Position numbers and translations under genes: made by a program. Under the pieces are notes generated by a model. That model had not been told where the DNA came from. It worked only from the letters and a program-made list of their open reading frames with translations, and ran no database searches. From Gordius sp. MW1 (lineage: Eukaryota; Nematomorpha; Gordioida; Gordea; Gordiidae): a stretch of DNA of 64,000 nucleotides. This document shows, one piece after another, positions 1,346-54,300 of this stretch. How positions within the stretch are numbered: position 1 is the stretch's first letter; each line of letters opens with the position of its first letter. The stretch spans positions 8,190,501 to 8,254,500 of the forward strand of contig OZ038528.1 of NCBI GenBank assembly GCA_964036665.1, given 5' to 3'.

Positions 1346-1531
1346 TTAAGCATAGACATAGGCCTCCGTCTCGGATGTGACATAGTATCCCCTTTCGTAT
1401 GCGATCTCTGCAAACAACCGGTCTAACCCAATGGTTATCATCCCCTCCATTGCAAATACAGCAAAGGCCGCAACCCCAGGCACACGACGATCAACATAAT
1501 TATCGGCCAGTACCTTAGGAAGGCTGGCTTT
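1346..1531 (-). pseudogene. Orphan coding-like fragment, unknown family
   Basis: The minus strand is open for about 60 codons and ends at a TAA at 1346-1348. The composition is protein-like (for example GVAAFAVFAMEGMITIGLD and AEIAYERGYYVTSETEAYV) and GC content is above the neighbourhood. There is no start codon; upstream the frame breaks, and a shifted frame continues with a short plausible stretch. I do not recognise the family. It could be a piece of a transposon protein or of a captured host gene. It lies 70 bp from a TIR element (1600-2489), with no obvious link. Confidence 0.3.
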
Positions 1532-1599
1532 TTAAACACCTTGGAGCCCGTTGGCCTTAGCACCACCGACGTTGTTTTTAAATTTTTAATGATAATGAG

Positions 1600-2489: not shown

Positions 2490-2793
2490 TACACATTTTA
2501 GCATTTGGCCGGGGTCAGATAAAGTAGAAGTTAGCAACGGTCAGCATTAATTTGCAGGGAATTATTTAGCCAGTATCGCATTCATCCATTATAAATAAAC
2601 AACCTAGACAAATTGCCCAATAATGGAATTTGAGCTTAGGCGAGGTGGAATAAAGTAAAGCCAATCAGCGGCAGCTAAATAAAAGGCTTTCATAGAAGCA
2701 TAAGTCCACAGCCATTAAAAACCCGTATAAGTTTCCACGGTAATTATTGAAGAGTTAAATAGGGCAGGATAAACAGGACGGAAAACCAAAAGA

Positions 2794-3051
2794 GAGCCCA
2801 CAAATTGCATTGCGATTAATATAAATAATTAAAAATAATATATACCCTTCGGGCGTAACTGGGGGCTTCGCCCCCAGACCCCCTTGGGGGCTTTGCCCCC
2901 AAACTCCCAGCTGAGGGCTCTGCTCCGCCCCCAGACCCCCGTTTAGCTCAGGACAGTCCCTGCTCCGCATATCTTTGCTTCAAATCCTCATACACATCGA
3001 CTACTCTTTTATACTTCGTATAAACAAAGCATATTTGCTATGCAATTTATG
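2794..3051. mobile_element. Short foldback element with GC-rich hairpins
   Basis: The ends are inverted: the left has 'cccacaaattgcattgcgatt' and the right 'tttgctatgcaatttatg'. Inside, between about 2855 and 2945, are strong hairpins such as TGGGGGCTTCGCCCCCA and TTGGGGGCTTTGCCCCCAA. The terminal motif CATAAATTGCATAGCAATTA recurs at many sites in this window (about 4061, 4921, 5151, 43649, 43766, 44499), so it marks a family. Confidence 0.5.
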
Positions 3052-3199
3052 TTGGAATCGTCACCTGTTACGACCGCGCATCTAAAAATGTCACAGGTAT
3101 CATAAGGATATCTCAAACAATTTACATGTGCTACATTGTTCCATTGGTCAGTACTAAGAGATGAATCAATACATACGAGTCTTAAAAAAACGAAAAGAA

Positions 3200-5175
3200 A
3201 ATTTGCTTCATATTTGGCCAATGGTCATTTTTCCATTTTCAGTACCAACAGATGGTCTATAAATCGATGTTAGCCAAAAAAACGGAAAAAAAAGTTTCTA
3301 TTCACATTCTGGCCAATGGTCATATATTTCTATTGGTCAGCAGCCAGGACGACACGGTAAAAGTGGATTCATAAGAGTCAAAAAAACGAAAAAAAAACTT
3401 GGATTCACATTTTGGCCAATGGTCATTTTTCCCATTGGTCAGCAGTCAACGGACGGCCAAAAAGCCATATTATCAATGGTATTAACAAGAACAATCATAA
3501 TAGTTTAAAAAAAAACGAAAAAAAAATTAGGATTTACATTTTGGCCAATGGTCATTTTATTCCATTGGTCAGCAGCCAACGGACGGCCAAAAAGTCTTAT
3601 TATCATTGGTATTAAAAAAAAACAATATATTAATTTAAACAAAAAAAATAAAAAAAAATTGGCCTCTCCTGGATTCGAACCCACAGCAGGAGAGGCATAG
3701 GCTTTTGTAAAGGGGGGGGGCACAGGGACCGGCATAGGCTCTGCTAGGGGAGGGCATAGGGTAATTGTCAATGTTACCAAAAAAAACGGGAAAAAAACTT
3801 GGATTCACATTTTGGCCAATGGTCATTTTTTTCATTGGTCAGCACCCAACGGACGGCCAAAAGGTCTTATCATCAATGATAGTAACAAAAACAATCATAA
3901 GAGTCAAAAAAAACTCCGGGATTCGAACCCAAAAACTAGTTAAATTAACAAAAATTAAAAGTAAACAACGTGACAAGACATTCGGTGCAAGACATTCGGT
4001 GCGTGACAAGACATTCGGTGCAAGACACCGAAGAGCGTGACAAACAAAATGGAAAGTGAGCCCATAAATTGCATAGCAATTAATCAAAAACTCGGGCCTT
4101 CGGCCTCGTGGGAAGGGGAAGAAGGGAATGGGAGTAGGGGAAGGGAAGGGGGAACTCTTCTATACTCCGTATAAACGTAGCATATTTGCTATGCAATTAA
4201 TGGGCGAGAAAGGTAGGAAGGGGCGAGAATGCCTATAGGGGGGTATTAAATGCAAAATAATTAGTTATAGGCCCTTGTAGGGGAGGGCATAGGGCAATTA
4301 TCAATGTTAACCAATTCAAAAACGAAAAAAAATTTCGATTTATTTGGCCAATGGTCATTTTTCCATTGGTCAGTAGCCTGCGGGCGATCAAAAAGTCATA
4401 TTATCAATGTTATTAACAAGAACAAAATATTAATTTAAGAGGGCATAGGGCAATTATCAATGTTAACCAATTCAAAAACGAAAAAAATTCGATTTATTTG
4501 GCCAATGGTCATTTTTCCATTGGTCAGTAACCTGCGGACGATCAACCTCCATCTTGAGGAGAGCAATTGGTGTATTTTAACCATGTAATTTTGCCCTATA
4601 ACAGTCAATTTACCTTCATCACTAGTTTATAAATTAAAACGAACGTAAATAAATTAAAGAGGGGCACAGGGACTCATATCAGTAGATGCATAGGCCCTTG
4701 TAGTGGAGGGCATAGGGTAATTATCAATGTTGACCTATTCAAAAACGAAAAAAAATTTCGATTTATTTGGCTGGTCATTTTTTTCAATGGTCAGTAGCCT
4801 GCGGACGGTCAAAAAGTCATATTATCAATGGTATTAACAAGAACAAAATATTAATTTAATTAAATATATACATTGGAGGGTAAACGGACGGACATCAACG
4901 GACAACGGACAACCACAAACGAGCCCATAAATTGCATAGCAATTAAAAACCCGACCCCGCCCGAAAAATCGATAACGAGAGAGAGATGATGTGGGGAGGA
5001 GACACGCGTATGTATTACTATTCTAACACAGCGAAGGAGATAGAGATGAGGGGTGGGGCACCTCTTATGCATTAATTTAAAAAATCGATAAAAAACAATG
5101 AAGGGTAACGGACAACGGACGGACCGATAGACAACGGACACCAAAAAACGAGCCCATAAATTTCATAGCAATTAA
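3200..5175. repeat. Repeat field A: diverged units with a CCAATGG/CCATTGG hairpin
   Basis: Diverged units share, in order, 'ggcataggcccttgtagggg', 'gcatagggtaattatcaatg', a poly-A-rich stretch, GGCCAATGGTCATTT, CCATTGGTCAG, 'ggacggccaaaaag' and 'tatcaatggtattaacaag'. The paired motifs CCAATGG and CCATTGG could form a 7-bp hairpin in each unit (near 3413, 3541, 3813, 4347 and 4498). Some units add a tRNA-like B-box in reverse (3661-3700). The same family makes up 42588-44540. No coding potential; short open frames here are by-products. Confidence 0.75.
3957..4043. repeat. Short tandem repeat of 'gacattcggtgc'
   Basis: Four tandem, slightly varied copies of 'gtgacaagacattcggtgca', the last changed to 'caagacaccgaagagcgtga'. 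It sits inside repeat field A. Confidence 0.65.
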
Positions 5176-5427
5176 TATTAAATTAATTCACTCAGTATTG
5201 ATAGAGGTTATAAATGGGGAGGAAATATGGGCAGCTGCACCCCTCCAAATTCAAAAATTCCTGATGAAAAAAACATTTTTTGCCCTATTTATACTGCCCC
5301 CCTCCAATTTAAATTGGCTCCGCCCATGGGATCACGTGTAAAATTATCTTTACTATTTATAATGCGGGTTGAGCTATTGATAAATTAATGAACTAGGCTA
5401 AAAACAAAATTTAGCTTTCTTTGTTAA

Positions 5428-7002
5428 TCTATATATATAAAGTAAAGTGTATGTATATATGTATGTAAGAGCTAATCTCTGAAACTACCGGTCCGATTCG
5501 CGCGAAAATTTACCCCTAGGTTCCCAGGGCGGCCAGGGGTAAAATAGCATTTTCAGAATCCTAAAATTCCTTTTAATTTTCGAGATATTGGGTTTTATGC
5601 GTTTTGACGTTCAATGAAATGTCAATCAAACGCACCTCCTCGCGTTCGTCGAAAATTTGAATATACAGACAGTTCTGTAGTAAAAGTGTATCACTTATAG
5701 TAGTTTGTAGTAAAACGTAATCTTTTCTTGACAACATAAAATTTATGAATTAGATTTCTTAAACGTCATCTTTCCTTAACGGTGACAATATAAAATTTAT
5801 GAATTAAATTTCTTAAACGTCATCTTTTCTTAACGGTGACAAGACAACATAAATTTTATGAATTAAATTTGTTAAACGTCATCTTTTCTTAACGGTGACA
5901 ACATAAAATTTATGAATTAACCTGAAATAAATAAGATTATAGATTATTTGAGAAAATATTAGGTGAAGAAGATGAATTTTTCTCATTATCATTAAATGAG
6001 ATATTTTAAATGAGATAGATGAAAGTATATATAATTTAATTGTAATATAAAATAGTCCAACGTTGATTATTCTGATTAAATGCTATTTATATATAAATGT
6101 CATTATTTATCTATCATTAATTTTTATTAAATGAGATATTTAAATGAGAATAAATTCTGAAACTACCGGCCCGATTCGCGCGAAACTTTACCCGTAGGTT
6201 CTCAGGGCGGCCAGGTGTAAAATAGCTTTTTCAGATTGCTAAAATTCCTTTTAATTTTAAAAATATCGGACATTTCTCGGCCTTTTGGTTTTAAAAAAGG
6301 GCTAAATTCTTCAGATCCGATTCGAGCGAAAATTTAGCCGTAGATGCCCAGATAGGCCAGGGGTAAAATAGCTTTTTCAGATTCCTAAAATACCTTTTTG
6401 TTTTAAAAATATCTGACATTTCCCGTCCAGTTTCATTTATAGCAGCATATACAATAATGACGTCATACATACAAAGCTGAAGTTTTCTCGAATTAGATAT
6501 TTAAAAGTATAATAAAAATGTTACAGTATACGGTTAAAATTATTGGGGTTTAACAGACTATTTAAATTAAATAAATAAAATTTAAATTATGCAGTTTTTG
6601 TCATTATTATCACGTGGTCGATCATAGAAGCATATTTTTAATAATTATCCATCCTTCAATTAATTATTTTATTATATTAAAGAAAATTGTATTTCAAATA
6701 AATCAGCTAACTAGAAAAATAAAATAATGCTATTATTGTATAATAAGTAACAGCATTAATAAGCAATTTTTTCAAAAACATTTAATTTTAGTCGGATTTG
6801 ATGACTAAAACAGAATTTGCATTTGGTTTGTCTTATTATATAAATATATACTAAAAATAGTGGGTTCATAAAATCATTCGGACCTTTCACATTATAAATT
6901 ATTTCATATATGACCCCATTTTAGATAAGTCTTATTAATAGCTTATACTCAATTAACCACTTAAGGACTGAGCCAAAGCAACGCTTGGCCGGGCACAGCT
7001 AG
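5428..7002 (+). mobile_element. Complete non-autonomous Helitron (Helitron B)
   Basis: The 5' end is TCTATATATATAAAG directly after an A at 5427. The 3' end is CTAG at 6999-7002 directly before a T at 7003. Insertion between A and T, a TC start and a CTAG end are Helitron hallmarks. A short hairpin just inside the 3' end (GCCAA-a-GC, loop AAC, GC-TTGGC, about 6972-6989) matches the design of the 3' hairpin in the Helitron at 19728-23306. The interior has no Rep-helicase frame. It holds three repeats of a 'ccgattcgcgcgaaa...ggccagg...gtaaaatagc' block (about 5477, 6146 and 6308) and a minisatellite. Confidence 0.8.
5716..5925. repeat. Minisatellite inside Helitron B, about 55-60 bp x 4
   Basis: Four tandem copies of a unit containing 'taaacgtcatcttttcttaa', 'cggtgacaacataaa' and 'tttatgaattaaattt'. 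Copies differ by small indels. Confidence 0.75.
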
Positions 7003-12924: not shown

Positions 12925-12933
12925 ATTAATAGT

Positions 12934-13516
12934 AGAGATGCACCGATACCACTATTTTGTGCCGATACCGATACCAGCCGATACTTAAGATTTTTTTGCC
13001 GATACCGATACCATGCCGATACTTATAATAAAAAAAATTTTATACTAAATGTCTAGTTTTTAAATGTTTCCTTAAATTTGAAGTGTTAAAGGAATGTTTG
13101 TCTTTGCCCCCACGACTTATTTTAGCTTTGCATAATTCAAAGATTACATTTTTTTCATCTGCTGACACAACAAAATAACTCCATAGTGTATCTAAAGAAT
13201 CCATCTAAGGCTTAATATATAATAATTTTTAAAATAAAATAATATTTACTTAAAAGCGCAGTCGGAACAGATGGTCAATGAGTTTATTATACTCCACATA
13301 GAAATATTTATAGCCAATCAAATGAAACAATTTTCAAAAAATTTGAAAAGTCCTCTATTTTTTAATCGTAGGAGATACTATAAGTATTATTTTTTGAGTT
13401 TCATATTAAAAAAGGTATCGGCTTGGTAATTGCCGATACTAGCAAAGTATCGGCCGATAGTTTTGGCAAGGTATCGGCGCCGATACCATGCCGATACTTG
13501 GTATCGGTGCATCTCT
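12934..13516. mobile_element. TIR element with GCCGATAC subterminal repeats
   Basis: The ends are AGAGATGCACCGATACC and its exact inverse GGTATCGGTGCATCTCT. Both ends carry multiple GCCGATAC-type motifs, as expected of transposase-binding sites. The interior is AT-rich and non-coding. It is flanked by GT on both sides and sits at the left tip of the giant palindrome (13518-18323): removing it and one GT rebuilds 'attaatag' + TAGTGTTG. Confidence 0.85.
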
Positions 13517-13609
13517 GTAGTGTTGTAAAAACGGCTGGCTGGTTTTTCCCAGCGTGTTGCCAAGCTTGGTAATTGGTGTATAAATAACGCCTAACCCTTT
13601 CAGTTTTAG

Positions 13610-13800
13610 GTGAATTTTTTTGGTTTACCCTTGGTGTATTGGCGCTTTTTACACCCATACACCAAGAGTGTTTGGGTGAAATTTCTTGGTTCACCCTTGG
13701 TGTATTGGCGCTTTTCACACCCATACACCAAGGGTGTTTGGGTGAAATTTTTTGGTTCACCCTTGGTATTGGCGCTTTTCACACCCATACACCTTTGGTA
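13610..13800. repeat. 63-bp satellite, left arm, about 3 units
   Basis: Nearly three units of 'cacccttggtgtattggcgc' + 'ttttcacacccatacaccaa' + 'gagtgtttgggtgaaattt'. It is the inverse of the array at 16871-18232. The last unit is shortened. Confidence 0.9.
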
Positions 13801-14018
13801 ACCTTTTGGTTTGGTTTTGGTCGTTTAGGGTTGTGTATGGAAATATGTAAAGTTTTTATAATTTTTGTATTTAATAGTTATTTATTTATGTAATCAACTT
13901 TTATTGATGGGAAATATGAAATGATGTCACTAAGCTAGTTATAATCAACCTATAATTTGTTCCAATTGGTATGCGATACATCATTCACTCAGATCATTAA
14001 AGGTGTTTTATGAAAATA

Positions 14019-14945
14019 TTTTTTTCACCTGTTCATTGTGAAACAGGTGACAAATTCCTAAATCTTTAATATCTATTGAAATAAATATTTTTTGGGGAAA
14101 TTGGTTCATTATATGACTAAAACAAGTTTTAAATATGAAAATAATATTTCTTCACCTGTTCAATGTGAAACAGGTGATAATTCCAAAATCTTTGATATCT
14201 ATTGAAATGAATATTTTTTTGGGAAATTGGTTTATTATATGACTAACACAACTTTTAAACATGAAAATAATATTTTTTCACCTGATGTAAAACAGGTGAC
14301 AAATTCCTAAATCTTTAATATCTATTGAAATGAATATTTTTTTTGGAAATTGGTTCATTATATGACTAACACAACATTTAAGCATGAAAATAATATTTTT
14401 TCACCTGTTCAATGTAAAACAGGTGACAAATTCCAAAATCTTTAATATCTATTGAAATGAATATTTTTTTTGGAAATTGGTTCATTATATGACTAACACA
14501 ACTTTTAAACATGAAAATAATATTTTTTCACCTGTTCAATGTAAAACAGGTGACAAATTCCTAAATCTTTAATATCTGTTGAAATGAATATTTTTTTGGG
14601 AAATTGGTTCATTATATGATTTAACAAGTTTTAAACAAGAAAATAATATTTTTTCACCTGTTCAATGTTTATTATATGACTAACACAACTTTTAAACATG
14701 AAAATAATATTTTTTCACCTGTTCAATGTAAAACAGGTGACAAATTCCTAAATCTTTAATATCTATTGAAGTGAATATTTTTTTTGGGAAATTGGTTCAT
14801 TATATGACTAAAACAACTTTTAAACTCGAAAATAATATTTTTCACCTGGTAAATGTGAAACAGGTGACAAATTCCAAATTTTTAATATCGATTGTAATGA
14901 ATATTTTTTTTGGAAATAGGTTTATTATATGACTAAGTTTTAAGC
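14019..14945. repeat. 127-bp satellite, left arm, about 8 units
   Basis: Each unit starts with a conserved hairpin TTCACCTGTT-caatgta-AACAGGTGA, followed by 'aatatctattgaaatgaata' and 'ggttcattatatgactaac'. One copy near 14653 is truncated and followed directly by the next. Confidence 0.9.
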
Positions 14946-15369
14946 ATGATAATATATAATGGAAGTTTTGAGTAGTTAGGTTTACTCTACATTAACTTTT
15001 ATAAAAATGATTTTAATTGGCTTATTCTAAGACGAATATAAGTTGTATAAAATTTGTGGTCAGACAAAAGGTGTCATTGACTTTTTTTCTATAAATGCTA
15101 CTTGTTTTAATATTGCTTTGTGCAAAATATCGGAAAATAAATGAATTGACCCAATTTAAAGATTATGACACCTTTTGTCTGACCACAAATTTTATACAAC
15201 TTATATACGTCTTAGAATAAGCCAATTAAAATCATTCTTATAAAAGTTAATGTAGATTAAACCTAACTCCTCAAAACTTCCATTATATATTATTTTCATG
15301 TTTAAAACTTGTATTTGTCATATAATGGACCAATTTCCAAAAAAAAATTCATTTCAATAGATATTAAAG

Positions 15370-16690
15370 ATTTAGGAATTTGTCATCTGTTTCACATTTA
15401 ACAGGTGAAAAAATATTATTTTCGAGTTTAAAACTTGTTTTAGTCATATAATGAACCAATTTCCCCAAAAAATATTCATTTCAATAGATATTAAAGATTT
15501 TGGAATTTGTCACCTGTTTTACATTGAACAGGTGAAAAAATATTATTTTCATGTTTAAAACTTGTTTTAGTCATATAATGAACCAATTTCCCCAAAAAAT
15601 ATTCATTTCAATAGATATTAAAGATTTTGGAATTTGTCACCTGTTTTACATTGAACAGGTGAAAAAATATTATTTTCATGTTTAAATGTTGTGTTAGTCA
15701 TATAATGAACCAATTTCCAAAAAAAATATACATTTCAATAGATATTAAAGATTTAGGAATTTGTCACCTGTTTTACATTGAACAGGTGAAAAAATATTAT
15801 TTTCATGTTGTGTTAGTCATATAATGAACCAATTTCCAAAAAAAATATTCATTTCAATAGATATTAAAGATTTAGGAATTTGTCACCTGTTTAACATTGA
15901 ACAGGTGAAAAAATATTATTTTCATGTTTAAAAGTTGTGTTAGTCATATAATGAACCAATTTCCCAAAAAAATATTCATTTCAATAGATATTAAAGATTT
16001 TGGAATTTGTCACCTGTTTTACATTGAACAGGTGAAAAAATATTATTTTCATGTTTAAATGTTGTGTTAGTCATATAATGAACCAATTTCCAAAAAAAAT
16101 ATTCATTTCAATAGATATTAAAGATTTAGGAATTTGTCACGTGTTTTACATTGAACAGGTGAAAAAATATTATTTTCATGTTTAAAAGTTGTGTTAGTCA
16201 TATAATGAACCAATTTCCCAAAAAAAATATTCATTTCAATAGATATTAAAGATTTTGGAATTTGTCACCTGTTTTACATTGAACAGGTGAAAAAATTTTA
16301 TTTTCATGTTTAAATGTTGTATTAGTCATATAATGAACCAATTTCCAAAAAAAATATTCATTTCAATAGATATTAAAGAATTTAAAATTTGTCACCTGTT
16401 TCACATTGAACAGGTGAAAAAATATTATTTTCTTGTTTAAAACTTGTTTTAGTCATATAATGAACCAATTTACCCAAAAAAATATTCGTTTCAAAAGATA
16501 TTAAAGATTCAGGAATTTGTCACCTGTTTCACATTGATCAGGTGAAAAAATATTATTTTCGATTTTAAAACTTGTTTTAGTCACATAATGAACCAATTTC
16601 CAAAAAAATATTCATTTCAATAGATATTAAAGATTTTGACATTTGTCACCTGTTTCACCTTAGAAAGGTAAAAAAAATATTTTCATAATA
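15370..16690. repeat. 127-bp satellite, right arm, about 11 units, inverted
   Basis: The same unit as 14019-14945 in reverse orientation, about 11 copies with ACAGGTGAAAAAATATTATT junctions. Copy number differs from the left arm although the flanking blocks still pair. Confidence 0.9.
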
Positions 16691-16870
16691 CACCTTTAAT
16701 GGTCTGCTCTGCATGAATGATGTATCGCATACCAATTGAAACAAATTATAGGTTAATTATAACTAGCTTAGTTACGTCATTTCATATTTCCCATCAATAA
16801 AAGTTCTCTACATAAATAAATAACTATTAAATACAAAAACGACCAAAACCAAACCAAAAGGTTACCAAAG

Positions 16871-18232
16871 GTGTATGGATGTGAAAAGGGCCAATACACC
16901 AAGGGTGAACCAAAAAATTTCACCCAAACACTCTTGGTGTATGGGTGTAAAAAGCGCCAATACACCAAGGGTGAACCAAGAAATTTCACCCAAACACTCT
17001 TGGTGTATGGGTGTAAAAAGCGCCAATACACCAAGGGTGAACCAAGAAATTTCACCCAAACACTCTTGGTGTATGGGTGTAAAAAGCGCCAATACACCAA
17101 GGGTGAACCAAGAAATTTCACCCAAACACTCTTGGTGTATGGGTGTAAAAAGCGCCAATACACCAAGGGTGAACCAAGAAATTTCACCCAAACACTCTTG
17201 GTGTATGGGTGTAAAAAGCGCCAATACACCAAGGGTGAACCAAGAAATTTCACCCAAACACTCTTGGTGTATGGGTGTAAAAAGCGCCAATACACCAAGG
17301 GTGAACCAAGAAATTTCACCCAAACACTCTTGGTGTATGGGTGTAAAAAGCGCCAATACACCAAGGGTGAACAAAAAAATTTCACCCAAACACTCTTGGT
17401 GTATGGGTGTAAAAAGCGCCAATACACCAAGGGTGAACCAAGAAATTTCACCCAAACACTCTTGGTGTATGGGTGTAAAAAGCGCCAATACACCAAGGGT
17501 GAACCAAGAAATTTCACCCAAACACTCTTGGTGTATGGGTGTAAAAAGCGCCAATACACCAAGGGTGAACCAAGAAATTTCACCCAAACACTCTTGGTGT
17601 ATGGGTGTAAAAAGCGCCAATACACCAAGGGTGAACCAAGAAATTTCACCCAAACACTCTTGGTGTATGGGTGTAAAAAGCGCCAATACACCAAGGGTGA
17701 ACCAAGAAATTTCACCCAAACACTCTTGGTGTATGGGTGTAAAAAGCGCCAATACACCAAGGGTGAACAAAAAAATTTCACCCAAACACTCTTGGTGTAT
17801 GGGTGTAAAAAGCGCCAATACACCAAGGGTGAACAAAAAAATTTCACCCAAACACTCTTGGTGTATGGGTGTAAAAAGCGCCAATACACCAAGGGTGAAC
17901 CAAGAAATTTCACCCAAACACTCTTGGTGTATGGGTGTAAAAAGCGCCAATACACCAAGGGTGAACCAAGAAATTTCACCCAAACACTCTTGGTGTATGG
18001 GTGTAAAAAGCGCCAATACACCAAGGGTGAACCAAGAAATTTCACCCAAACACTCTTGGTGTATGGGTGTAAAAAGCGCCAATACACCAAGGGTGAACCA
18101 AGAAATTTCACCCAAACACTCTTGGTGTATGGGTGTAAAAAGCGCCAATACACCAAGGGTGAACAAAAAAATTTCACCCAAACACTCTTGGTGTATGGGT
18201 GTAAAAAGCGCCAAACACCAAGGGTGAACCAA
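16871..18232. repeat. 63-bp satellite, right arm, about 21 units, highly homogeneous
   Basis: About 21 nearly identical 63-bp units. The main variant is 'gaaccaagaaatttcaccc' versus 'gaacaaaaaaatttcaccc', scattered through the array. Each unit has nested inverted motifs: CTTGGTGTAT with ATACACCAAG, and GGGTGAA with TTTCACCC. Because 63 is a multiple of three and the unit lacks stops in several frames, open frames of 450-490 codons exist on both strands; they are not genes. Confidence 0.95.
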
Positions 18233-18331
18233 AAAAATTCACCTAACACTGAAAGGGTTTGGTGGGAAAAAACGCTAACCCTTGCAGGCGACCAATCTAA
18301 AACCTTGGTTTTTTACAACACTAATTAATAG

Positions 18332-19996: not shown

Positions 19997-21362
19997 CAGA
20001 GGTCAGATTTGTTTAAATTTTTTTGCCCGAACCCGGCCCGGTTTGATTTTATGATTAAATTGCCCGCCCGGCCCGCCCGAACCCTTCTCAGTGTCCGCCC
20101 GGCCAGGCCCGAAGCGCAAGAACTCCCCGAAATGCCCGCCCGGCCCGGCCCGAAGCGCAAGAGCTGCCCGCCCGGCCCGGCCCGAAGCGCAAGTAAAAGT
20201 ATTACACTTTTTATTATTAAACATGTTAAAAAATAAAAAAATGCAGGATATCACGCAAATGAACACTTTGAATTGAAATACCACGAGATTTACTTGAAAT
20301 TGAATGGATTAAATACTGTAAAGTAAATGTGAAAAAGAAAATAATAGCGAAGCGATTAAATTTAGTAGAATGAAAATGAATATGAAAACGTTTTTAAGAG
20401 AGTTGGATGTTTGTCTAGACTGCACGTGCACGCACATGCACAGCACATGCGTTCGTTAGTTAGCAATAAAAAAAGGAAAGGACGTAAAAGTAATAGTAAA
20501 GTAAATATTCAACAAATTCATTAAAAATGCGATACTCTCAACAAGGGTTAAATAAAGGGTACAGACAGAGATCAGAAGAATGCCCGGCCCTTAATAAAGC
20601 ACACTAAAAAAATAGAATTTTAATTAGCATTTCGAATCAATCAAATTGTGTTGTGTTGAGCCCAAGGTCATGGAGGGATAAAAATATGCATCTTTCATAT
20701 TATTACAAGTGTGGTTTGGTAACACTTCAGAGGTTGGGTCAAAAATGTTAACACGGATGGTATTTGGGCTATTAATTACCCCAAACTAATAGCTATAACT
20801 TAGATATTTTATAATTTAAACTTGTCAAAATTTGTTAATATATTAATTTGTCTATTTGATCAAGTGGTTTTAATTTTATGCCTATAATTATAGAAAACGA
20901 ATTTATTTTGCACAGCATTTTTAAACGGCTTGGGGTCATTACCATTATAACCCCACCCGACCTATGAAGTGTTAAAGGTGAAGTGTGTAAGGCAATTCAA
21001 TCTAGCTAGAAATTTTCAAAAATAATCCATTTTATATAAAAAGTCACACCCTACCCTAGCCCTACAATAATTTATTTATGCCCGAATCTTATCAAAGCGT
21101 GCCCGCCCGGGCCGCCCGAAAAGTAAAACGTGCCCGCCCGGGCCCGCCCGAAAGGTAAAATTTAAGACAGTTGACCGGCCCGGCCCGGCCCACAAAAAGT
21201 CACACCCTACCCTAGCCCTACAATAATTTATTTATGCCCGAATCTTATCAAAGCGTGCCCGCCCGGGCCGCCCGAAAAGTAAAACGTGCCCGCCCGGGCC
21301 CGCCCGAAAGGTAAAATTTAAGACAGTTGACCGGCCCGGCCCGGCCCGCAATCTGGTCTCTG
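19997..21362. mobile_element. CCCG-rich hAT-like element nested in Helitron C
   Basis: The ends are CAGAGGTCAGATTTG and, inverted, CAATCTGGTCTCTG. The flanks are 'gtaagtag' (19989-19996) and 'gtaggtag' (21363-21370), an 8-bp duplication with one mismatch. The related Helitron at 18-580 carries the uninterrupted site ('gtgtaggttgtgtagtgtg', about 320-340). The interior has dense CCCGCCCGG clusters and no transposase. Confidence 0.75.
21038..21342. repeat. 156-bp tandem duplication within the CCCG-rich element
   Basis: Starting at 21038 and again at 21194, the same sequence ('aaaaagtcacaccctaccct', then CCCG clusters to 'gttgaccggcccggcccgg') is repeated almost without change, so the duplication is recent. 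Confidence 0.9.
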
Positions 21363-23540: not shown

Positions 23541-26500
23541 TTAATTATTATCATTGGTATATGGAGGAGGAGATGCAGAGGATGAACATGTAGAACTATT
23601 GACAGTCCTAAAACTAGGCCGGCTAGCGTGGACTTGATAAAGGCTGGTTCTTGTATTACCACCGGGAAACGTTGTATTGGCAGAACAAGTGACCGTGGTC
23701 ATAATATGCATCATAGATGAGCCTGGGTGCGACAAATTCGAAATTGAACCTCGGTTTTCGCATTCCGGCGAAGCTTGATGATCATTACCCACCACATAAT
23801 GACTGCGTTAATTGTGAAAATCATTAAACTATAGCAAATTAAGGGACTCGTTTAAAAAAATTATATAATAACAAGCTAGTTTAATTAATAAAGAAAGCCA
23901 AAATTATTAAATAAACATTCGCCGAAAAGATCGTACCTGGTTGTTGAAGGATCTAAGGCTTGGCTGGCGATTAAATTGTCGCAACCCATTAAAAAATTGC
24001 TGATATTCATGGACGTTTGCGTAAGGCGATTGAAAGTACTACTAGCATCTTGGTTTACCTCCGGCTGCTGTCTTATATTTCCGGTTTCGTTAGAAGGAAA
24101 TAAATACATAGACTGATTAGAGTTTGTCCCACTTTCTAAACTGTTCAAAGTGTTTATAGCTCGCCCATCCCCAGAACTCGAAGTAGTTATCGGAGGTATT
24201 GTGCTAGTTGTAAGGTGGTTTGGGACAGAAAAACTTTGGTTGGTGGAAGAGGGGGTAGTTGACACAGAACGCCTAGCAGTGTGTTGTAAAGTTGTGGGCA
24301 AAGGACTAAAATCGGATAGGAGAGTGTTGGGACATTCAAAATGGACGCAGTGGAAAACCTAGTTGGCAAAATCTTGGTAAACATATATCAATTGGTAAAG
24401 TACCTCGTTAGCCGTATTGTGTGTACCAACGATCTTTATAAAAATGACGGGCCTTGGGACAAAGATTAAATTTTGCCAGGATTTACAAAATTCGGTCGTC
24501 CTGTCAACAACGCGAGTCCAATTAATTTGATCGATTGAAACTTCGATATAGTATTTGTAACTCCTTTCGTCACAATCCCATAAAAGCAATCTGTTCATGC
24601 AATTGATTTAAAGCGCATGTATCAAAAATAAGACTAATTGTAGGAAATTAAATTTTGAATTACCGATTGCACATGGGTTTAAATTTAAAAAAAACTAAAT
24701 ATAAGTTTAAATTTGAACCTACCAACGATAGAAAATAAATATAACGGTAAATAGTTTTAGAGAACAAAATACGGGAGCAAATCTTGTCGTCTGTTTTAGG
24801 TATGCACATGCAAATAAAAGACCATTTTACTTTACAATCCGTGCATATAATGTTACATAAAATTCATAAATTGCATAGCAATTCATAGTAATCATTTTGA
24901 ACTGATCAATACCTCATAGATCCGATAAGGTATGGTTGTGCCAGTTGGATAACGATACAACCGCTTCCCAACTGATGACACGTGTAACCGGAATCCCAGT
25001 CGTAATTTTTGGTATCGCCATTCAACAAAGCATTTCGGCACCGACTGACCCCTTCCAAAACACAGGCACTGGCGGTGAGAGAAGCAACGTTGTTCGTGGG
25101 GCCTACCAGGAGTCACGTTAACGATATAATTAATGGCTACAAAATATATAACTGTAAGGATCTGTAACCTTTCCATGCGGGAATTATTATTATAACTACC
25201 ATTTTTATTATATAAAAGGTTGAATATCGCTTTTGAAACGAATGGACGAGAGATTATTTTTATATAATCATCTGTTTCATCATTTTATTTTTATATTATC
25301 ACCGGATCGAAAACGTGATATGATTTTGAATAATCATCGGCGTAGAATCATTACTTTGTTTTTGATAATCGCTACGTGATTACTTTTTACTTGTTGATAT
25401 AATCTATATCGGGCGAAAAATAAAGCTTTTGGACTGGAATATTATTGATCTCTTTCAATTCGGGCCCTCAATCAAACAATAACAAAGGGAAAAATTGTAA
25501 TTTATATCATAAATATTATGAAGGTTATAGTAAGTAACCCACACAAAATTCCATCCACCAATCTAAAGGGGTTGCAGGTGTAAAGGGCTTCGAAATGAAC
25601 CAAATGAAACACACGATTGACTGTGTTGTGAGTTCCAACCACCCTGATGTACCTGAAGTTTTAAAATATATTTTAAGAACTAATAGAAGAGGCATAACTA
25701 AGGGGTTCTAGGGGTATATGGATATTAGATTTTGGTCTCCTACATAATAAAAAAATTGTTGTTATTATTATTATCATAATGTAGTATTCTTAGAGTGGCC
25801 GATAGGAAAATTAAGGTGGCAGGGAGAATGGGCAAGGCCTCAAGGGTCGATACCCTGACAAAAACTGTATGATATTCTAACATTTTGTGAAATGTAAAAT
25901 TTTTTCAAAGCATTAGTTATAAGATTAAATCTACAACAAGTTAATATTAAATTTAAACAATGTTTAAATTAAGCCAAGTTCTACTATTTTCAGTTTAACT
26001 AATCGAATTAGCTCTATTCATATGGTTTTATTATCACAGGCAAATTAAATTTCAAATCAACATTTTCAAACTGTATTCTCTAATACATTTCTATAAAAAT
26101 CATTTATAATTGGATGTAATTTTCAATGATGAATGAAGTGTTTGGTACATAAATATTCATTTCTATAACGGCAATTTAAAAGTAGATTAAATGTTTATTT
26201 CCGAATAAAACGCTTAGTGCAAAAAAACATTTTCAAATATATTTTGACCATGACAAATCAAAATGGTTTCGACCGACCATCAGATTTGGATATTTTTTGG
26301 TGAGAATGTAGAAGGTTTTAGCCATTTTAAGCTAGTACATTTTAAGTTGTGGAGGTTCAAAGCCTTCTCGATTGAGAATTTATTTAAGAACAAAACACAC
26401 CAAAAGTGGAGAGGATAGCGCCTTTCCTTTCGAAAATATGACAAAAACAGTATAATTTTGTAAACGCGCCCGAATGTTATTGGGACATTCCATGTCAAAT

Positions 26501-29500
26501 CGCCACGTTTTCGGCCGACCCCCTCAGAATTTTATAAAATTTGGTGGAAATGTTAAAACTAGTAAAATTATTAATTTCCGAAAATTTTAGCTCATTTGGG
26601 CCACTACTTTTCGAGTTGTGTGCTCTCAAAGGTCGAAAATCGGCCATTCAAAAAATCGGGTTGTGACGCTATATTCAATAAAATTCATAAATTATTGGCC
26701 CCCAAATCATAGAATCTTGTTGTAGTAATAGGTAAGACCTATCTCCATAGGGAAAAAATCCAAAAAAATTTTTTTGTCGATTGGTCATCTCATAATGGCC
26801 GAAATGGCCAATATGGCATAACTACTGTTGAACTCTCTCAAACCGTTTCAAATTTGAGACAAATGTTTTATACTACCTATTAACCAAATTAAATAAAAGA
26901 GAAAGTTGGGCGGCCATCTTGAAGTGGTCAGAAATTGCTAGAAACGGTATTTTATTTATTTGGTGCCAAAATGACCCTCTAAAATTGGTTTTATTACTCA
27001 TTTAGCCATCTTATAATATTATTATATCTATTATACAAATATTTTTGCTATAAATTAACACCCCAACCCCCCCCCCCCCCCCCATATTTCCTATAAATTA
27101 CAATCAAAATAGGGAGTGATTTTTCTTCGAATTTTGAAATAGAAACAGCTTTGAAAAATCACCTTAAACAATAATTTTTTTCAAAGTATATATTCATTGT
27201 TTGTTATTCGATATGTAAAAGTATTAAAAAAAAGTATGACGGAGGGCATGTCTTCAAGCGCATATAAAAAATTGATTTAACATATCTGAAGTATATTTTA
27301 GGTAAGGCAATATGTTTTAGTGTCGCATCAAGCATTTCGTTTTAAATAAGGTATAAGTTCTCCGGTTGAGGTTAAAGGTGATACAATTTTTAATATATCC
27401 CATTTCTTTAGAGATATTTTGTGAAATTTATCTAAGCGAAAGGGTTCGCATGGGTTAAGCAAACTAACTATTATTTTTTCATCGTCATAATTTTTATTAT
27501 AAATTAGATTCAAAATTTCGAACGTCTAGGGGATAATTAGTTGATAGTAAAATTAAACGATAAAGTAATTTTATTAAAAGAATTCGACATCATTTAAAAT
27601 TCGCGCTAGAGGTCATACAAATTAATTCATACGCGCCAAAAAAGAAATCAATCTGTGTTGATAAGGCAATTTTAAAGCCTATATTCAATAATCCTGACGA
27701 TTTTATTATCTATTTCACGAGCCTGTTTCCAAATTACAATAAAATAATTTGTGGGAAAAAATTACTCGCTATTTTGATTTAAGATTAAAGGGGGGGGGGG
27801 GGGGGGGTTGGGGTGTTAATTTATAGCAAAAATATTTGTATAATAGATATAATAATATTATAAGATGGCTAAATGAGTAAAAAAACCAATTTTGGAGGGT
27901 CATTTTGGCGCCAAATAAATAAAATACCATTTCTAGCAATTTATGACCACTTCAAGATGGCCGCCCAACTTTCTCTTTTATTTAATTTGATTACTAGGTA
28001 GTATAAAACATTTGTCTCAAATTTGAAACGATTTGAGAGGGTTCAACAGTAATTATGCCATTTTGGCCATTTCGACCATTATGAGATGACCAATCGACAA
28101 AAAAAAATTTTTAAATTTTTTTCCTATGAAGATAGGCCTTACCTATTACTACAACAAGATTCTATGATTTGGGGGCCAATAACTTATGAATTTTATTGAA
28201 TATAGCGTCACAACCCGATTTTTTAAATGGCCGATTTTCGACCTTTGAGCGCCCATAACTCGAAAGGTAGTGGCCCAAATGAGCTAAAATTTTCGGAAAT
28301 TAATAATTTTACTAGTTTTAACATTTCCACCAAATTTTATAAAATTCTGAGGGGGTCGGCCGAAAAACGCCTTTTTATGATCGATTTGACATGGAATGTC
28401 CCTATTTTAGCCCTTTAAACGTCCATAACTTAAAAAGTGCTGACCCAAAAAGGCTTTTAAGAAATGATGAGGCCTACACCTTCACCAGAAATAATCTAAA
28501 TATGAAATGGTTGGTGGAAAATATACTTTTTTTGACGATTCCACATGAAATGGCCCAGTTAATTTACATTAGATATAATGTTTACTTCGAGAAAAATGAA
28601 ACCAAGTTCAAATTATAATATCTAGATCATATGTTAAAATCATTAAAAACTCTCGTTTTATTCTATTTAAAGTATGACTCATTAGTGTAATTTCGTATAA
28701 AATTCATTAGTTGCTTTAAAACCCTTATTTTATCAAATAATTAAGATCCACAACCACCGTCATAAAGCATATATTCATTCGACAAATAATGCATAGCGTG
28801 TACGAACCTAGCTACGCGTGGGTTAAAGTACAAATTTTGCCACGATCGACAGAGGTAACGGGAATAATCGATGATTTTGACCCAATCTTTATCATCAACC
28901 GATGTTTCGATGTAATACGAATACGCTCTGCATATGGGTTATCCAAAATTTAAATGAATTCTAGAGTTTATAATAGCGAAATTATAATATTTTTTCTGCT
29001 ATGTTAAAATATACAGAGCCGGCTCATGTAAATTAGTAAACTTTTTCTATAATACGATTATTCAAGATTAAAGAACAATTCAATATATAAGCACATCATA
29101 AAAAAATATCATTAATAAATTTTAAAACCTTACACGTCCTTTTACATAATTATGTCATCTATATTTATATTTCCCTTTAATTTTAATCATAGATGTACTT
29201 TATTAAGGCATAAAATGGGATTAGGTTAACTCTTACTGCAAATAAATTATGAGGAAATATGATTTTTCGGGGCTAAAGCGCAACCCTATTCAAATTTTGT
29301 AGGTTACTTAAAAATGAGGTTTTTTCAGCTATAAATTTTATAGTATAAAGAATCGACTTTTTCATGATTTACGTGTAAATATATCGGGTTTAAGAACTTA
29401 ATTAGCTTAAGTGGCATGATCACTCTGAGGCTATCAATTTCCTTTAATTGTTCATAAATTAAACATAGTGCCCAATTACTGTAAACTTATTGAATCCTAT

Positions 29501-32500
29501 AAATAAAAAAACAAAAACATCATGTCCTTTTATGTTTAAAATTGCCTAATGCAAGTTGAAAAAACAAATTTAAATTCAAATCCATTATATTATAATATAG
29601 GATGGAATGGCCGTCTTAAAATGCTTGAAACATTCTTAAATTAATAAAATAAAAAGTGTACTTGAAGGCTCGACACTTATTTTCAAAAGACAATTAAGAT
29701 TAATAAATTGTTCGAGCTTCCAAGGCCTTTTCAATGCTTTCTAGGATTGCCAGTGGTGGGTAGAAGAATATTTAAACCCGATTTCGAATTTGGTGTTTTT
29801 ATATTTTTATAAATTGGATATCAACGTTTAATGATTTATATCACAAAAATAAGGAATATTTTTAAAATTTCTACGGTATAAGTTTAAGACATTTATCTTA
29901 AAATATCAAAATTATACTCTCACTTTCAAGGATTTAAATGTAAACCCCAATTGAATTAGAAAATCGCTAAAAGTAGCATTTGGTATGAGGTTTAAATATT
30001 AATTATAATTGGTGATGTTGCCGACGCTTGCTCTCATTTGTAATTTTATCCTATGAATAAAAATATCCATTAAAAACTTTAAAAAAAATAGGGTTTATTA
30101 GGATTTTTTAAAATTTCTATCATCCTTAAAATTCCCAGCCGGGCCCTATTTAAATATGTGAAAATTGGGGCTCAAGTCAGTGACCTAATTTTTTTATTTA
30201 AAATTTTGGGCCCGTTTTAAATTATAAAAAAATTTAAAGTTATATTATATAACAAATCCTTTCTCGGCAAAAATGACTTTAGATAGGCTATTATTTTTCT
30301 TCACCATCTTTCTGTGAACACTCATTAAACACAACCATCACCCGATTTGCCATGAAAATTTTAAATTAAACATTATTTGTTTAACATCATAACTTACATG
30401 ATGTGCAAATAAAATTTCAAGTGCCCATATAAACTTAACTTCGGTGGTAGGAAATCAATGGGTGATTACACAAACGCATGATATTAAATTTTCAATAATA
30501 AAAATTCAAATTCCCGTGTAAATTTGATTCATTAATTTTAAGTTCATACAGGAGGGGGGGGGCATAAAACAATTTTTAAAAATGTTTAAGCTATTTACGT
30601 ATTAAAAAAACTTTTCTCACATTTGACAACGCCCATGCGTATTTGGCTTAAGCGCTTAGGGCTAACAAACCTCATATCCTTGTCCCACAACAGGAGTTTG
30701 ATGTGATTAACGATGGATTGGGTGCCGAGCTTGATGACAATACCGCTACTCGAATTATTTTCGTCGATGGGATGGCGGGCAAAACCGCGATCTAAGTCGT
30801 AATTCGTAGTGTCGCCGTCCAATAACGCCCCCGTCGTCTCACCGAACGTCACGTGCGCTCCGTGCCTCAGGGTTGCTATGTTTTCCTCGGGAGCTGCCCG
30901 GTAACGCGTTACAATTAATTTATCATCAAAATAAGGTTAATTTTAGGCTAGGTTAGTTGTCTAAAAATTTTGACCTTAAGGGTTGAGGCTGATATTGACC
31001 TATAACCTCGAGGCAGAGGTTAGCGTTTTTAAAATACCTCAAAAGTTCCTTGAAACTAAATTAACTAACCTATTAGGTTAGGTCGACAATTTTCCCATCA
31101 CCAATCCATACTCATAAAATAAAATGGCTCAAGAAGCAATGATATATATTATTGTGGTCATTTTAGCGCCAAAAGTAATATATTATATAGCCTTTTTTAC
31201 CATTTTTTGATGGTAGCCTACCTCACATTTTTATTTAAATTGCTATATAGGTGGTAAAAAACGTAGTGTTGTAAAAACGGGCGAATGTTCTAAGATTTGA
31301 TTAAACCTTTGGTTTCGTGCGACTAAGGAAAACAGAACAAAAAATTTCTGGCTTGTTTATTTATGTTTAGTCGACTAAAACCAAAGGTCTACCAACAAAA
31401 CCCACCAGTTTTTACAACACTATAAAAAACTTTAGTATTAAATTTTAAGTTTGGGACTAGGCAACGGTAGAAATAATATTTTCGCCATAATCAGATGACC
31501 AATCAATAAAAAAATTTCCAATTTTTCTCCATGAAGGCCACTACAGCAAAAATTTATAATTAGGGGGTGAATACCTTAAGTAAAAAATCTATTTTTTACC
31601 TTTAAGCCCCCAACTCAAAAAACTTTCAGAATTTCATAAAATCAATAGTTTCTGAATTTTCACCAAATTTTATTAAAATATGAGAGGGTCGGCTAAAAAC
31701 GTGGAGATTTAACATGGAATGCCCTAGAGGAATAAACCAGTTAATATGGGGGAGAATAGTCAAGTACAAAAACCGACGAAAGTGCTTTTTATCTAAAAAT
31801 ATCCTACCCAAATAACCGCGGTAGCTGAGGTCCGAGTTCCGTTTTTCAATCTTTTCCCGTATAGCGTCAAGTAAGGCATCGGGCGGAATTAAGTTAGTTG
31901 GCCTGACCACATCCATAATATCACCCAAATTCATGAGAGGCAACCTTATACTCCTCAATATTTCGGTCGGATCTATGTCTTGGTTGTAGGTGCTCCAGCT
32001 ATGTACGGCCCTAAAAATTTCGATTTCGTTGACACAAAATGAATCTCGTCGTATCATATCGTGCATCGCAGCCTGATTAAACAATCATGCATAACATTTT
32101 TGTTACAATTCCTTCAAAGAATTATATTAAAATAACCTTAAATAAAATACAACATTTAAGATTATGTTATTGACCAAGTTTTTTCAATAATATGAATAGC
32201 TGATTTTTATTAAAATCACAAACGTTGTTGATAAAAAAAAGAACGAAAACAACTTTACGTAAACTATTCTCAAGAAAAATTTAAAAAAGATAGAAGTTAC
32301 CTAAAAATTACAATCAGATGATGTTAAAATGAACACTTCACATTTTTCATGTAATGAAAATCCCATTACATTTACCCTGATATTTTTATAATCACATTTT
32401 ATAGTTTAAAATGTAATATAACAACAGTTATAGGGATTTGAACACAAATTATTCTAGATAAGTTATTGGTTAATAAGCTTACAGCAGAAAGAGTAAGAAA

Positions 32501-34053: not shown

Positions 34054-34113
34054 CGATAGTATTTTATATGTAAGGTTGCCCGTCAACTTGCCGAAAACAA
34101 TCTTGCCGAATTG

Positions 34114-34403: not shown

Positions 34404-34467
34404 CCGAATTGAATGTCCCAATGTTAAAAATGTGCCCTAATTAGAAAATGTCCACAAACGCTCCTGG

Positions 34468-37640: not shown

Positions 37641-37693
37641 AGAGTAACATCGGTCTTTCGTTTTGGGGCAACCGGTATAATGTCCTTCGGGTC

Positions 37694-37717: not shown

Positions 37718-37730
37718 TTCGAAGCGACAA

Positions 37731-51389: not shown

Positions 51390-54300
51390 ATGCAATTCAA
51401 GGAAATATTTTTGCATCCAAAAACAAGTCCGCCTCTTAAACTTTGGAGGAGAAATCAGGTGAATTTATTGTGCATGTGAATATTTATTATTATTAATTGA
51501 TATATCTATGGACGATATTGATTTATATTAATTATTAATGCAAATTATTGCGAATTTTACAATTTTGTTGCTGTTTTGGTAAATTACAATTAGAATTTAT
51601 ATATATTTGTGTAAAATAATTATTCATTTAATAAAGTATGTTAAATTTTTAGTGGGAGGAGTGCAATTGCTTAGGAATAAGAAAATCACCTGTGGCGGGT
51701 AATTATGAAGCAATTTAAAGAACTTTTACAGGATTTGATAATATACATAGCTAAAATATTTATTCTTCAACATACGTATCTCAATTTATTTTAAAAAATT
51801 GGCTCTGAGCTGGTTTTAGTGTTGAACAAAATTAACGTTGTTTTATTCCAAATGACCCGAAATTTATATTAAATTTCATCTTAAATGAATAATTTTACTT
51901 CTAATTTTCTATTTCCCCTCCAATTCGACTCCATCATAGAATTCATAATTGTCACTACTAATCTGTAATACATGGAAACACGTTTATTTATTAATAATGG
52001 TTTTGCAACTTCTTTATAGCTGTAATTTGGGCCCATATATACTTTATAACATTTTAATCGCCACACTTCATTTTATGACTTGTGATGTGATCAGAAATTG
52101 GTTAAAAACGGTTCACAAATGCACATGGGCGTAGCCAGGGGGTGGCAGGGAGGGGCGGCTGCCCCCCTCTAAATTCAAAAATTCCTTAAAAAGTATAGTT
52201 ATAGCTAAAATTTTAACATTTTGCTCTTTCGAAAATCATTATTGCCCCCTCCAATTCCAATCCTGGCTACCCCCATGCACATGCATATCTCTAATGAGTT
52301 ACAAAATATTTCTATATTCGATATCACACTCATTTTTGCACAATTATATTCTTGACAATTAATAAGTGTTGTAAAATGATTAGTCGCTCTTTAGTTCAAC
52401 TAAATTTAACGGCCCGGCCCATTAAACAGAAATGGACCAAAAGCCTCGGGTCTGTTTCTTAAATTTCGGATCCAGAGGGACTAAGGAACAGACCAAAAAT
52501 TTTTGTTTAAACAAAGGTAAACTAATTGAAACCCAGTTTTTTTACAAAACTACAATTAAACAAATCAATTAGTATATATTTACTGTATAAAAATATATGT
52601 AAATTAAATGATATAAACAAAATTATTCGTTGTTACATTTTTCAAATTATTTAGCTTAGAGCATAATTAAAAGTGTTACCAGATTAAACATTTTATTGAT
52701 TTTTTATTAATATATAATTGTTACCTAGGAAATTTAAGTTTTAGCAAACTAAATAAAATGTTTAATAGTTTGCTCAAAAGCCTGATGCAATGCCATGAGG
52801 GAAATTTTAATAAGTGTGATGGATGGGGAAAGTCACTTTTTATCAATCCGACTCCGACCCGACCTGAAAACATAAAAAAAATTTAACCCGAACCCGGCCC
52901 AAAGGCATTTAAAAACTTTCAACCGAACCCGACCCGGAAAGCGTTTAAATCTATTTAACCGAATCCTTCTCGAATGCGTTTCAAATTTTGGTATCCGACG
53001 CGAGAGTAAGATAAATTGCGGTGTAAAATTAATCGACAATTAAAGTGCGATTTGTGAAACTAATTAATACCACAGATTTTAACTAGTATATTTATTTGAA
53101 TAATTTATTATAGTGATGTATAAATATTCGGGTCGCAACCTCATCCTTTTCTCTTCCAAATTTCGTTTTTAATACATATAATACAATATAATTGATTTGA
53201 AATATAGAGTTTCCAAATAAACCATTTAATAAGTTTAAATGTGCTTTTATGTTGATTTATGAATATAAATTTATCTTGAATTAATAATGAACTACCACTT
53301 TACACTATTTAAACAAAATGAATGATCTTAATTATATATTTTGATATTAATTCAAAATATTCTACATGACATCATCAATTTAAAAGATATGTCCCCTATA
53401 CTTTGCAATATAAGATTCATATCATAACCTTTGGCCCGACTCCTTAAAAATTTTCAACTTGGGGTCAACAGTGCAGGTTTCTAGTTGAGATATATTGGCG
53501 GGCACTGTTAAATAAATATCGCTTAAAACACTTAAGAATTAAAATATTATAAATTAAAAATGATTTTTATTTAGATACTTAAAGGTTCCCAAAAGGAATA
53601 TGTATTTAATAAATTTAAAGGAAAAATTATAGTCTCAATTTTAAAATATGTATGAGCAACATACGAAGTTTTTAGTTGTAAAATAATTTGGTTATCCTTA
53701 TTAACTATAAAAATATCTACTTACAACAATTTGATTTGCATCACTAATGGCATCATTTTGTATATTTATTTTATCATTTTTTTAATATATAATGTAGATA
53801 TAGTAAAAATATTCAAATGTTGGCAAATGCATAATGAAATATAACAAAAGCTGTTTGTTTGACAACATAAAGAAAAGAGTAGATAGAAGAATTAAAAAAA
53901 ACATCTACAAACTGAAATTGATGTTCCCCATTTCCTCATCGTTTGTAAATGAGGAACGGTTTTTGTTATCATTTTATCAGCCCTCTTTGCTTGATAAAGA
54001 GGGGGGTGTGGTGGGGAACGGAATGCTTTTTGCATAACTATAAAATGGGATGCTATATGGACGGCCACACAGATTTTTGGCACATTAGTCATCATTAGCA
54101 TCATGCTAAATAAAACATTTTGGAATCATTTTTTATACAATTTAAAGCACGCATTTACATTCATCAGCTTTCCATTTAGAGACGCATTCAAATTTCCACA
54201 TAAATTCCACGTTTAGTCTTCTTTCACGGTATATTTCCTTTTCAATTAAATTATGATATAATATTTCTTACTCAATCGATAGGAGAAAATCAGCCAGGGA

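What the first reader, a model, noticed from the sequence alone, without database searches (positions are those of the whole stretch)
12925..18331. A 4.8-kb near-complete palindrome with satellites in both arms and clean target-site evidence
The sequence from 13518 to 18323 mirrors itself down to an 80-bp centre and ends in hAT-like termini. Two satellite families (63 bp and 127 bp) occur in both arms in inverted order. The target duplication 'attaatag' is found only if a second element at the tip (12934-13516) is removed, and the same removal rebuilds the terminus exactly. A mobile palindrome that carries its own satellites is unusual and could seed satellite DNA elsewhere in the genome.
Basis: partly seen in the sequence, partly recalled or inferred. 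Interest (0 to 1): 0.85.

Follow-up and report, generated by a model that had tools for sequence, protein, structure and literature searches.

The report
Satellite-bearing foldback DNA transposon
A 4.8-kb non-coding jumping-gene copy built as a lopsided palindrome carries two tandem-repeat families in each arm; two short relatives with the same ends lie nearby, and it resembles foldback elements already known to supply satellite DNA.

Summary
13518-18323 is a 4,806-bp inverted-repeat element with perfect 14-bp termini (TAGTGTTGTAAAAA) and ATTAATAG on both sides once a 585-bp second element (12933-13517) at its left tip is set aside. Two tandem families occur in both arms in opposite orientation. 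The outer unit is 66 bp, not 63. The palindrome is lopsided: arms about 1.6 and 3.2 kb, 66-bp units 3 versus 21, 127-bp units 7 versus 11. Single-copy arm segments are 94-95% alike.

New here: two more end pairs in the window, a 159-bp element (31264-31422, flanks TAAAAAAC) and an older 189-bp one (52364-52552, flanks CAATTAAT/CAATTAAA). So the ends look like those of a real transposon family with 8-bp duplications.

Best reading: a non-autonomous foldback transposon, probably hAT-mobilised, with MITE relatives. The plan closely matches Drosophila Tetris (tandem repeats in foldback arms, 8-10 bp duplications, a MITE sharing its ends, satellite arrays derived from it). No transposase, no second satellite-bearing copy and no genome assembly were available, so hAT membership and satellite seeding remain untested. 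New member of a known kind.

The parts
12925..12932 (.). left copy of the 8-bp target-site duplication ATTAATAG
   Evidence: matches 18324-18331
12933..13517 (.). second element, 585 bp, hAT-like: 17-bp inverted ends AGAGATGCACCGATACC and GCCGATAC subterminal repeats; sits exactly between left duplication and left terminus
   Evidence: end alignment; 18 nt; GCCGATAC 7 times on + and 3 on -, 0 elsewhere in window; no own 8-bp duplication
13518..13531 (+). left terminal inverted repeat TAGTGTTGTAAAAA
13602..13793 (-). 66-bp tandem array, left arm, 3 units
13794..14009 (+). single-copy inter-array segment, left arm (171/182 identical to right arm; 38-base block only here)
   Evidence: aligned as 13790-14009
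14021..14958 (-). 127-bp tandem array, left arm, 7 full units; a 61-base remnant at 14650-14710 inferred from the gap between units
14949..15084 (+). inner core of left arm
   Evidence: 95% complementary to 15158-15293
15085..15157 (.). 73-nt central loop
15158..15293 (-). inner core of right arm
15287..16675 (+). 127-bp tandem array, right arm, 11 units
16676..16869 (-). single-copy inter-array segment, right arm
   Evidence: aligned as 16687-16885
16870..18250 (+). 66-bp tandem array, right arm, 21 units: 15 exact consensus, 4 of one identical variant, 2 edge units
18310..18323 (-). right terminal inverted repeat
18324..18331 (.). right copy of ATTAATAG
31264..31422 (+). 159-bp MITE with the same perfect 14-bp ends; flanks TAAAAAAC (one extra G on the left); lies between ORFs of a BACK-domain gene
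   Evidence: gene:
52364..52552 (+). 189-bp older MITE with the same kind of ends (2 and 1 mismatches); flanks CAATTAAT/CAATTAAA (7 of 8)

Best explanation
13518-18323 is a non-autonomous foldback-type DNA transposon of a eukaryote, probably an animal. A cut-and-paste transposase supplied in trans, most likely of the hAT superfamily, recognises the 14-bp ends plus subterminal sites and makes 8-bp target duplications (shown: ends and flank repeats at three loci; inferred: hAT and supply in trans). The element arose by inverted duplication of a segment that already carried short tandem arrays (inferred from shared array edges and close unit matches across arms). Afterwards array copy number changed separately in each arm by unequal exchange or slippage, the right 66-bp array standing at 21 mostly identical copies (inferred). 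The 66-bp unit may multiply a subterminal transposase-binding motif (ACCNTTGGT-like), as proposed for Galileo arrays (speculative). A second hAT-like element landed at the left tip.
For: Perfect 14-bp ends and ATTAATAG flanks. A scan of the window for the same ends (at most 4 mismatches in all, span 60-6000) with at least 7 of 8 flank match, one base of offset allowed, found two more loci, 31264-31422 and 52364-52552; of 300 permuted termini, 1 gave one locus and none gave two. Single-end matches with up to 2 mismatches: 8, against mean 2.52 and maximum 6 in 100 shuffles; six of the 8 belong to the three elements, 51817 and 53111 form no pair. The interiors of the two short loci resemble each other: score 48, reached by 0 of 1000 shuffles but by 4 of 981 real windows. 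All 6 listed ORFs of 100 aa or more that overlap the element overlap its 66-bp arrays, and the longest (511 aa) has no Pfam match. 66-bp edge units L13663 and R18190 are each other's best match (0.967); the 127-bp units L14523/R16167 (1.000) and L14396/R15794 (0.991) likewise; 6 of 7 left 127-bp units match best in the right arm. ACCNTTGGT: 30 sites in the window, 27 in the element, 2 in the 159-bp MITE, 1 elsewhere (motif chosen after seeing it shared).
Against: No transposase with these ends was seen; only 9 of the 29 ORFs of 100 aa or more in the window were scanned. No second satellite-bearing copy was seen. Of the flank repeats only ATTAATAG fits nTnnnnAn (pattern for Hermes) and none fits Buster nnnTAnnn. 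If base 12933 counts as flank, the main duplication can be read as 9 bp (ATTAATAGT), which would suit Mutator as well. The left flank of the 159-bp copy has one extra base. Length 4.8 kb exceeds the under-4-kb figure for hAT quoted in PMC3517528. The close 127-bp unit pairs across arms are not in mirror order, and 6 of 11 right units match best within their own arm, so a simple mirror copy is not the whole story. For Hermes the paper holds it unlikely that extra transposases bound inside the ends support transposition in cells (section heading), which speaks against the binding-site idea.
Confidence: 0.8

Rival explanations
1. Foldback transposon of another superfamily with 8-10 bp duplications (Mutator/Phantom-like, as suggested for Tetris and reported for Tm1, or P-like as Galileo).
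For: [quoted passage not shown] Tm1 is a Mutator/Foldback family with 9-bp duplications and MITE-like members (abstract). The main duplication can be read as 9 bp. No transposase here to decide.
Against: Perfect ends are short (14 bp) and begin TAGTG, which fits the hAT end pattern YARNG (recalled, no call). Flank repeats are 8 bp at two loci and 7 of 8 at a third; Mutator usually has 9-11 (recalled).
Confidence: 0.15
2. The ATTAATAG duplication belongs to the second element (12933-13517), and the palindrome joined its right edge later, by a different route.
For: The second element also has hAT-like ends, and on either reading one of the two elements lacks its own 8-bp duplication.
Against: Two other loci with the palindrome's ends have 8-of-8 and 7-of-8 flank repeats at, or one base from, those ends; the right terminus abuts ATTAATAG exactly.
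Confidence: 0.12
3. The palindrome is an assembly or amplification artefact (inverted chimera).
For: Long inverted repeats are a known artefact of whole-genome amplification and mis-assembly (general knowledge); reads were not available.
Against: The arms differ by 5-6% in single-copy parts, by a 38-base block, by unlike end caps and by array copy number; the outer ends form terminal repeats with a flanking duplication.
Confidence: 0.03

Closest known systems
Tetris (Drosophila virilis foldback transposon; PMC4079207, passages read)
   Same: Non-autonomous; long inverted arms with an internal tandem array of varying copy number, inner domain and non-coding middle; 8-10 bp duplications; a MITE (DAIBAM) shares its ends; described as source of satellite arrays.
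   Different: Here two tandem families per arm (66 and 127 bp) instead of one of about 220 bp; perfect ends only 14 bp, then about 55 bp not clearly alike between ends; no sequence comparison with Tetris was made; satellite seeding not shown here.
Galileo (P superfamily; PMC3688188, abstract read)
   Same: Long, internally repetitive inverted repeats; arrays reported to hold further transposase (THAP domain) binding sites.
   Different: Galileo has a P-type transposase (abstract) and 7-bp duplications (recalled); here 8 bp and no transposase.
Tm1 Mutator/Foldback family of root-knot nematodes (PMC3169594, abstract read)
   Same: Composite inverted repeats of variable length, MITE-like members, flanking duplications.
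   Different: 9-bp duplications and a Mutator (Phantom-like) transposase; here 8 bp and none found.
hAT MITEs such as Mar (PMC3517528, passages read)
   Same: Short inverted ends, 8-bp duplications, non-coding.
   Different: Mar has CAG(G/A)GGTAGGC ends and nnnTAnnn targets; the passages read mention no foldback arms with tandem arrays.
Sea-urchin TU foldback elements (recalled; sea-urchin foldbacks are mentioned in the Tetris passages)
   Same: Foldback arms with short tandem repeats in an outer domain and 8-bp duplications (recalled).
   Different: Repeat units of other length (recalled); not compared here.

Membership tests
Foldback-type DNA transposon | long inverted arms with tandem repeats and a non-repeated middle | tested here: met
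Foldback-type DNA transposon | flanking target-site duplication | tested here: met
   ATTAATAG both sides after setting aside the tip insertion; relatives 8/8 and 7/8
Foldback-type DNA transposon | several copies differing in arm and array length | not testable with these tools
   no genome held; only short relatives in the window
hAT superfamily | 8-bp target-site duplication | tested here: met
   3 of 3 loci found, one with 7 of 8 matching and one with an extra base on the left; the main one can also be read as 9 bp
hAT superfamily | short ends of 5-27 bp (range quoted in PMC3517528) starting YARNG (pattern recalled) | tested here: met
   TAGTGTTGTAAAAA
hAT superfamily | target pattern nTnnnnAn (Hermes) or nnnTAnnn (Buster) | tested here: inconclusive
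   only ATTAATAG fits the first; none of the three fits the second (patterns)
hAT superfamily | overall length under 4 kb (as quoted in PMC3517528; a usual rather than a strict feature) | tested here: not met
   4,806 bp; the two short relatives are 159 and 189 bp. Because of this and the missing transposase, hAT is given as the likely mobiliser, not as settled membership
hAT superfamily | hAT transposase in an element with these ends | not testable with these tools
   element non-coding apart from array ORFs; no genome held
Tetris family | sequence similarity to Tetris or DAIBAM | not tested
   no sequence of Tetris was fetched

The most novel reading that the evidence does not exclude
A hAT-mobilised foldback whose outer 66-bp array is an amplified transposase-binding subterminal motif (ACCNTTGGT-like), so that selection for being mobilised, not neutral slippage, expands the array and makes the transposon a carrier and generator of satellite DNA with two separate satellite families per arm.
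Probability: 0.2. Interest if true: 0.5.

Novelty: new member of a known kind. Interest (0 to 1): 0.3.

Why it matters
Foldback elements with tandem arms are one proposed route by which satellite DNA arises and disperses. A clean copy with two distinct array families, defined ends, a duplication and MITE relatives in the same 64 kb gives a tractable family for asking whether array growth follows transposase binding or simple unequal exchange. The principle itself is already in print (Tetris).

Tried and rejected
Whole-genome search for the termini: not possible, no genome is held for this window. Exact-pattern scans of public collections with a piece of the 66-bp unit (viral, prokaryote genomes), of the 127-bp unit, of the left end and of the second element's end: 0 matches in each; expected for a eukaryotic repeat, so uninformative. 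Rfam and tRNA scans of the window: nothing. A pattern for a short two-ended element found nothing because its spacing was too narrow; the scan replaced it. Protein-coding reading of the 66-bp arrays: the four ORFs of 458-511 aa follow from a unit divisible by three, lie on both strands, and the one tested has no Pfam match. An 8-bp duplication owned by the second element: only 3-4 bp overlaps. A TA duplication for the palindrome (ends read as GTGTTG): would leave the 8-bp flank repeats of three loci as coincidence. Aligning the palindrome without its arrays to the 159-bp MITE gave no convincing similarity beyond the 14-17 bp ends (scores 34-46, no control run). The similarity of the two MITEs is modest: 4 of 981 real windows score as high on the interior, and the whole-element comparison gave 63 against a maximum of 60 in 300 shuffles. 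The 189-bp element folds somewhat better than its shuffles as single-stranded DNA (z -2.55; 3 of 200 shuffles as good), which adds little.
Full report
What is there. The stretch 13518-18323 is a 4,806-bp inverted-repeat element. Minus-strand self-matches cover 4,689 of its 4,806 bases, against at most 67 in 50 dinucleotide shuffles; among 13 tiles of the same length across the window the next highest value apart from a tile holding part of this element (2,268) is 1,295, from another inverted pair at 26479-28405. From the outside inwards each arm has: a perfect 14-bp end TAGTGTTGTAAAAA; about 55 bp that differ between the two ends, followed by a short shared stretch; an array of 66-bp units; a single-copy segment with 171/182 aligned positions identical between the arms and a 38-base block only on the left; an array of 127-bp units; and a 136-nt core, 95% complementary to its partner, with 73 nt between the cores. 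The palindrome is lopsided: 66-bp units 3 on the left and 21 on the right; full 127-bp units 7 and 11.

The ends and the target site. ATTAATAG lies at 12925-12932 and at 18324-18331. The right copy abuts the right end exactly. On the left a 585-bp element (12933-13517) stands between the duplication and the end. It has 17-bp inverted ends (AGAGATGCACCGATACC) and GCCGATAC ten times on the two strands together, and nowhere else in the window. If base 12933 is counted as flank, the duplication reads as 9 bp. The second element has no 8-bp duplication of its own, only overlaps of 3-4 bp. At this site alone, therefore, the duplication could be assigned to either element.

The family evidence. Eight single ends with up to 2 mismatches occur in the window (mean 2.52, maximum 6 in 100 shuffles). 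Six of them form three pairs: the palindrome, 31264-31422 and 52364-52552. The 159-bp element at 31264 has both ends perfect and TAAAAAAC on both sides, with one extra G on the left. The 189-bp element at 52364 has ends with 2 and 1 mismatches and flanks CAATTAAT/CAATTAAA. A scan with fixed rules (at most 4 end mismatches in all, span 60-6000, at least 7 of 8 flank match, offsets of one base allowed) found exactly these two; the palindrome does not pass it because of the tip insertion. Among 300 permuted ends, one gave one locus and none gave two. The rules were written after the two loci had been seen. The two short elements also resemble each other inside: 0 of 1000 shuffles reach the observed score, but 4 of 981 real windows do, so this is fair rather than strong support. 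Together these loci say that the ends belong to a transposon family with 8-bp duplications, and hence that the ATTAATAG pair is most simply the palindrome's.

How it was made. The outermost 66-bp units of the two arms are each other's best match (0.967). Of 7 left 127-bp units, 6 match best in the right arm; of 11 right units, 3 match best in the left arm, 2 tie and 6 match best in their own arm. The two closest pairs across arms (L14523/R16167 1.000, L14396/R15794 0.991) are not in mirror order. Mean identities of 127-bp units are left-left 0.913, right-right 0.932 and left-right 0.926. So the arrays were already there when the inverted duplication formed, or the arms have exchanged sequence since, and the order has been reshuffled. 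The right 66-bp array is uniform (mean 0.976): 15 of 21 units are exact consensus, 4 are one identical variant (17332, 17728, 17794, 18124) and 2 are edge units. That fits later growth by unequal exchange or slippage, or loss of copies on the left. These steps are inferred.

How it likely works. The element codes for nothing recognisable: the 6 listed ORFs of 100 aa or more that overlap it all overlap the 66-bp arrays, and the 511-aa one has no Pfam match. It must be moved by a transposase made elsewhere; none was seen, but only 9 of the 29 ORFs of 100 aa or more in the window were scanned. Short ends starting TAGTG (the YARNG pattern is recalled) and 8-bp duplications point to hAT; the target patterns of the three loci do not settle it, and 4.8 kb is longer than the hAT size quoted in PMC3517528. 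Hermes, a hAT transposase, binds subterminal repeats, although that paper holds extra binding inside the ends to be unlikely to support transposition in cells (passages). Galileo arrays hold transposase binding sites (abstract). ACCNTTGGT occurs 27 times in the palindrome, twice in the 159-bp element and once elsewhere in the window. The motif was picked after the fact, so this is a lead only.

What is known. Tetris of Drosophila virilis has almost the same plan: non-autonomous, long arms with a tandem array, 8-10 bp duplications, a MITE with the same ends, and satellite arrays derived from its repeats (passages). Tm1 (abstract) and Galileo (abstract) are further foldback-type families. I searched the paper library with six queries. 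The listings, which show only the best-ranked papers, named no foldback with hAT-type ends and two tandem families per arm; I read passages of three papers and the abstracts of two, and only open-licence papers are held.

Limits. No genome is held for the window. The host is not identified; 'animal' rests on a gene that resembles BTBD9 by recall, with Pfam showing only its BACK domain. Exact-pattern scans of viral and prokaryote collections were empty, as expected for a eukaryotic repeat. Neither unit was found outside the element in the window. Satellite seeding, copy number and the transposase remain open. The finding is real, largely explained, and a new member of a known kind.

Noticed in passing
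26479-28405: An inverted pair of about 650-bp arms (92% alike, about 630 bp apart) starting GGGACATTCCATGTCAAATCG on both sides; no flanking duplication of 6-11 bp at the edges tested.
   Followed up: partly
37731-39567: A second tandem array, 247-bp unit, 7.5 copies. No inverted pair flanks it in 36500-41500; a perfect 24-bp palindrome lies just before it at about 37694-37717.
   Followed up: partly
30595-32713: ORFs on the minus strand, two of three with a BACK domain (Pfam), by recall like animal BTBD9; the 159-bp MITE lies between two of them.
   Followed up: partly
3134-4949 and 42639-44531: Two repeat-rich stretches related to each other by many blocks of about 69-93% identity.
   Followed up: no
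1633-2345 and 62983-63696: A dispersed direct repeat pair of about 750 bp, 77% identical.
   Followed up: no
21038-21351: A 156-bp unit duplicated in tandem at 99% identity, with G+C-rich CCCGCCCGGG runs.
   Followed up: no
34113-34404: A 74-bp inverted pair with 100% identity about 145 bp apart, one flank showing GGGACATTC as at 26479.
   Followed up: no
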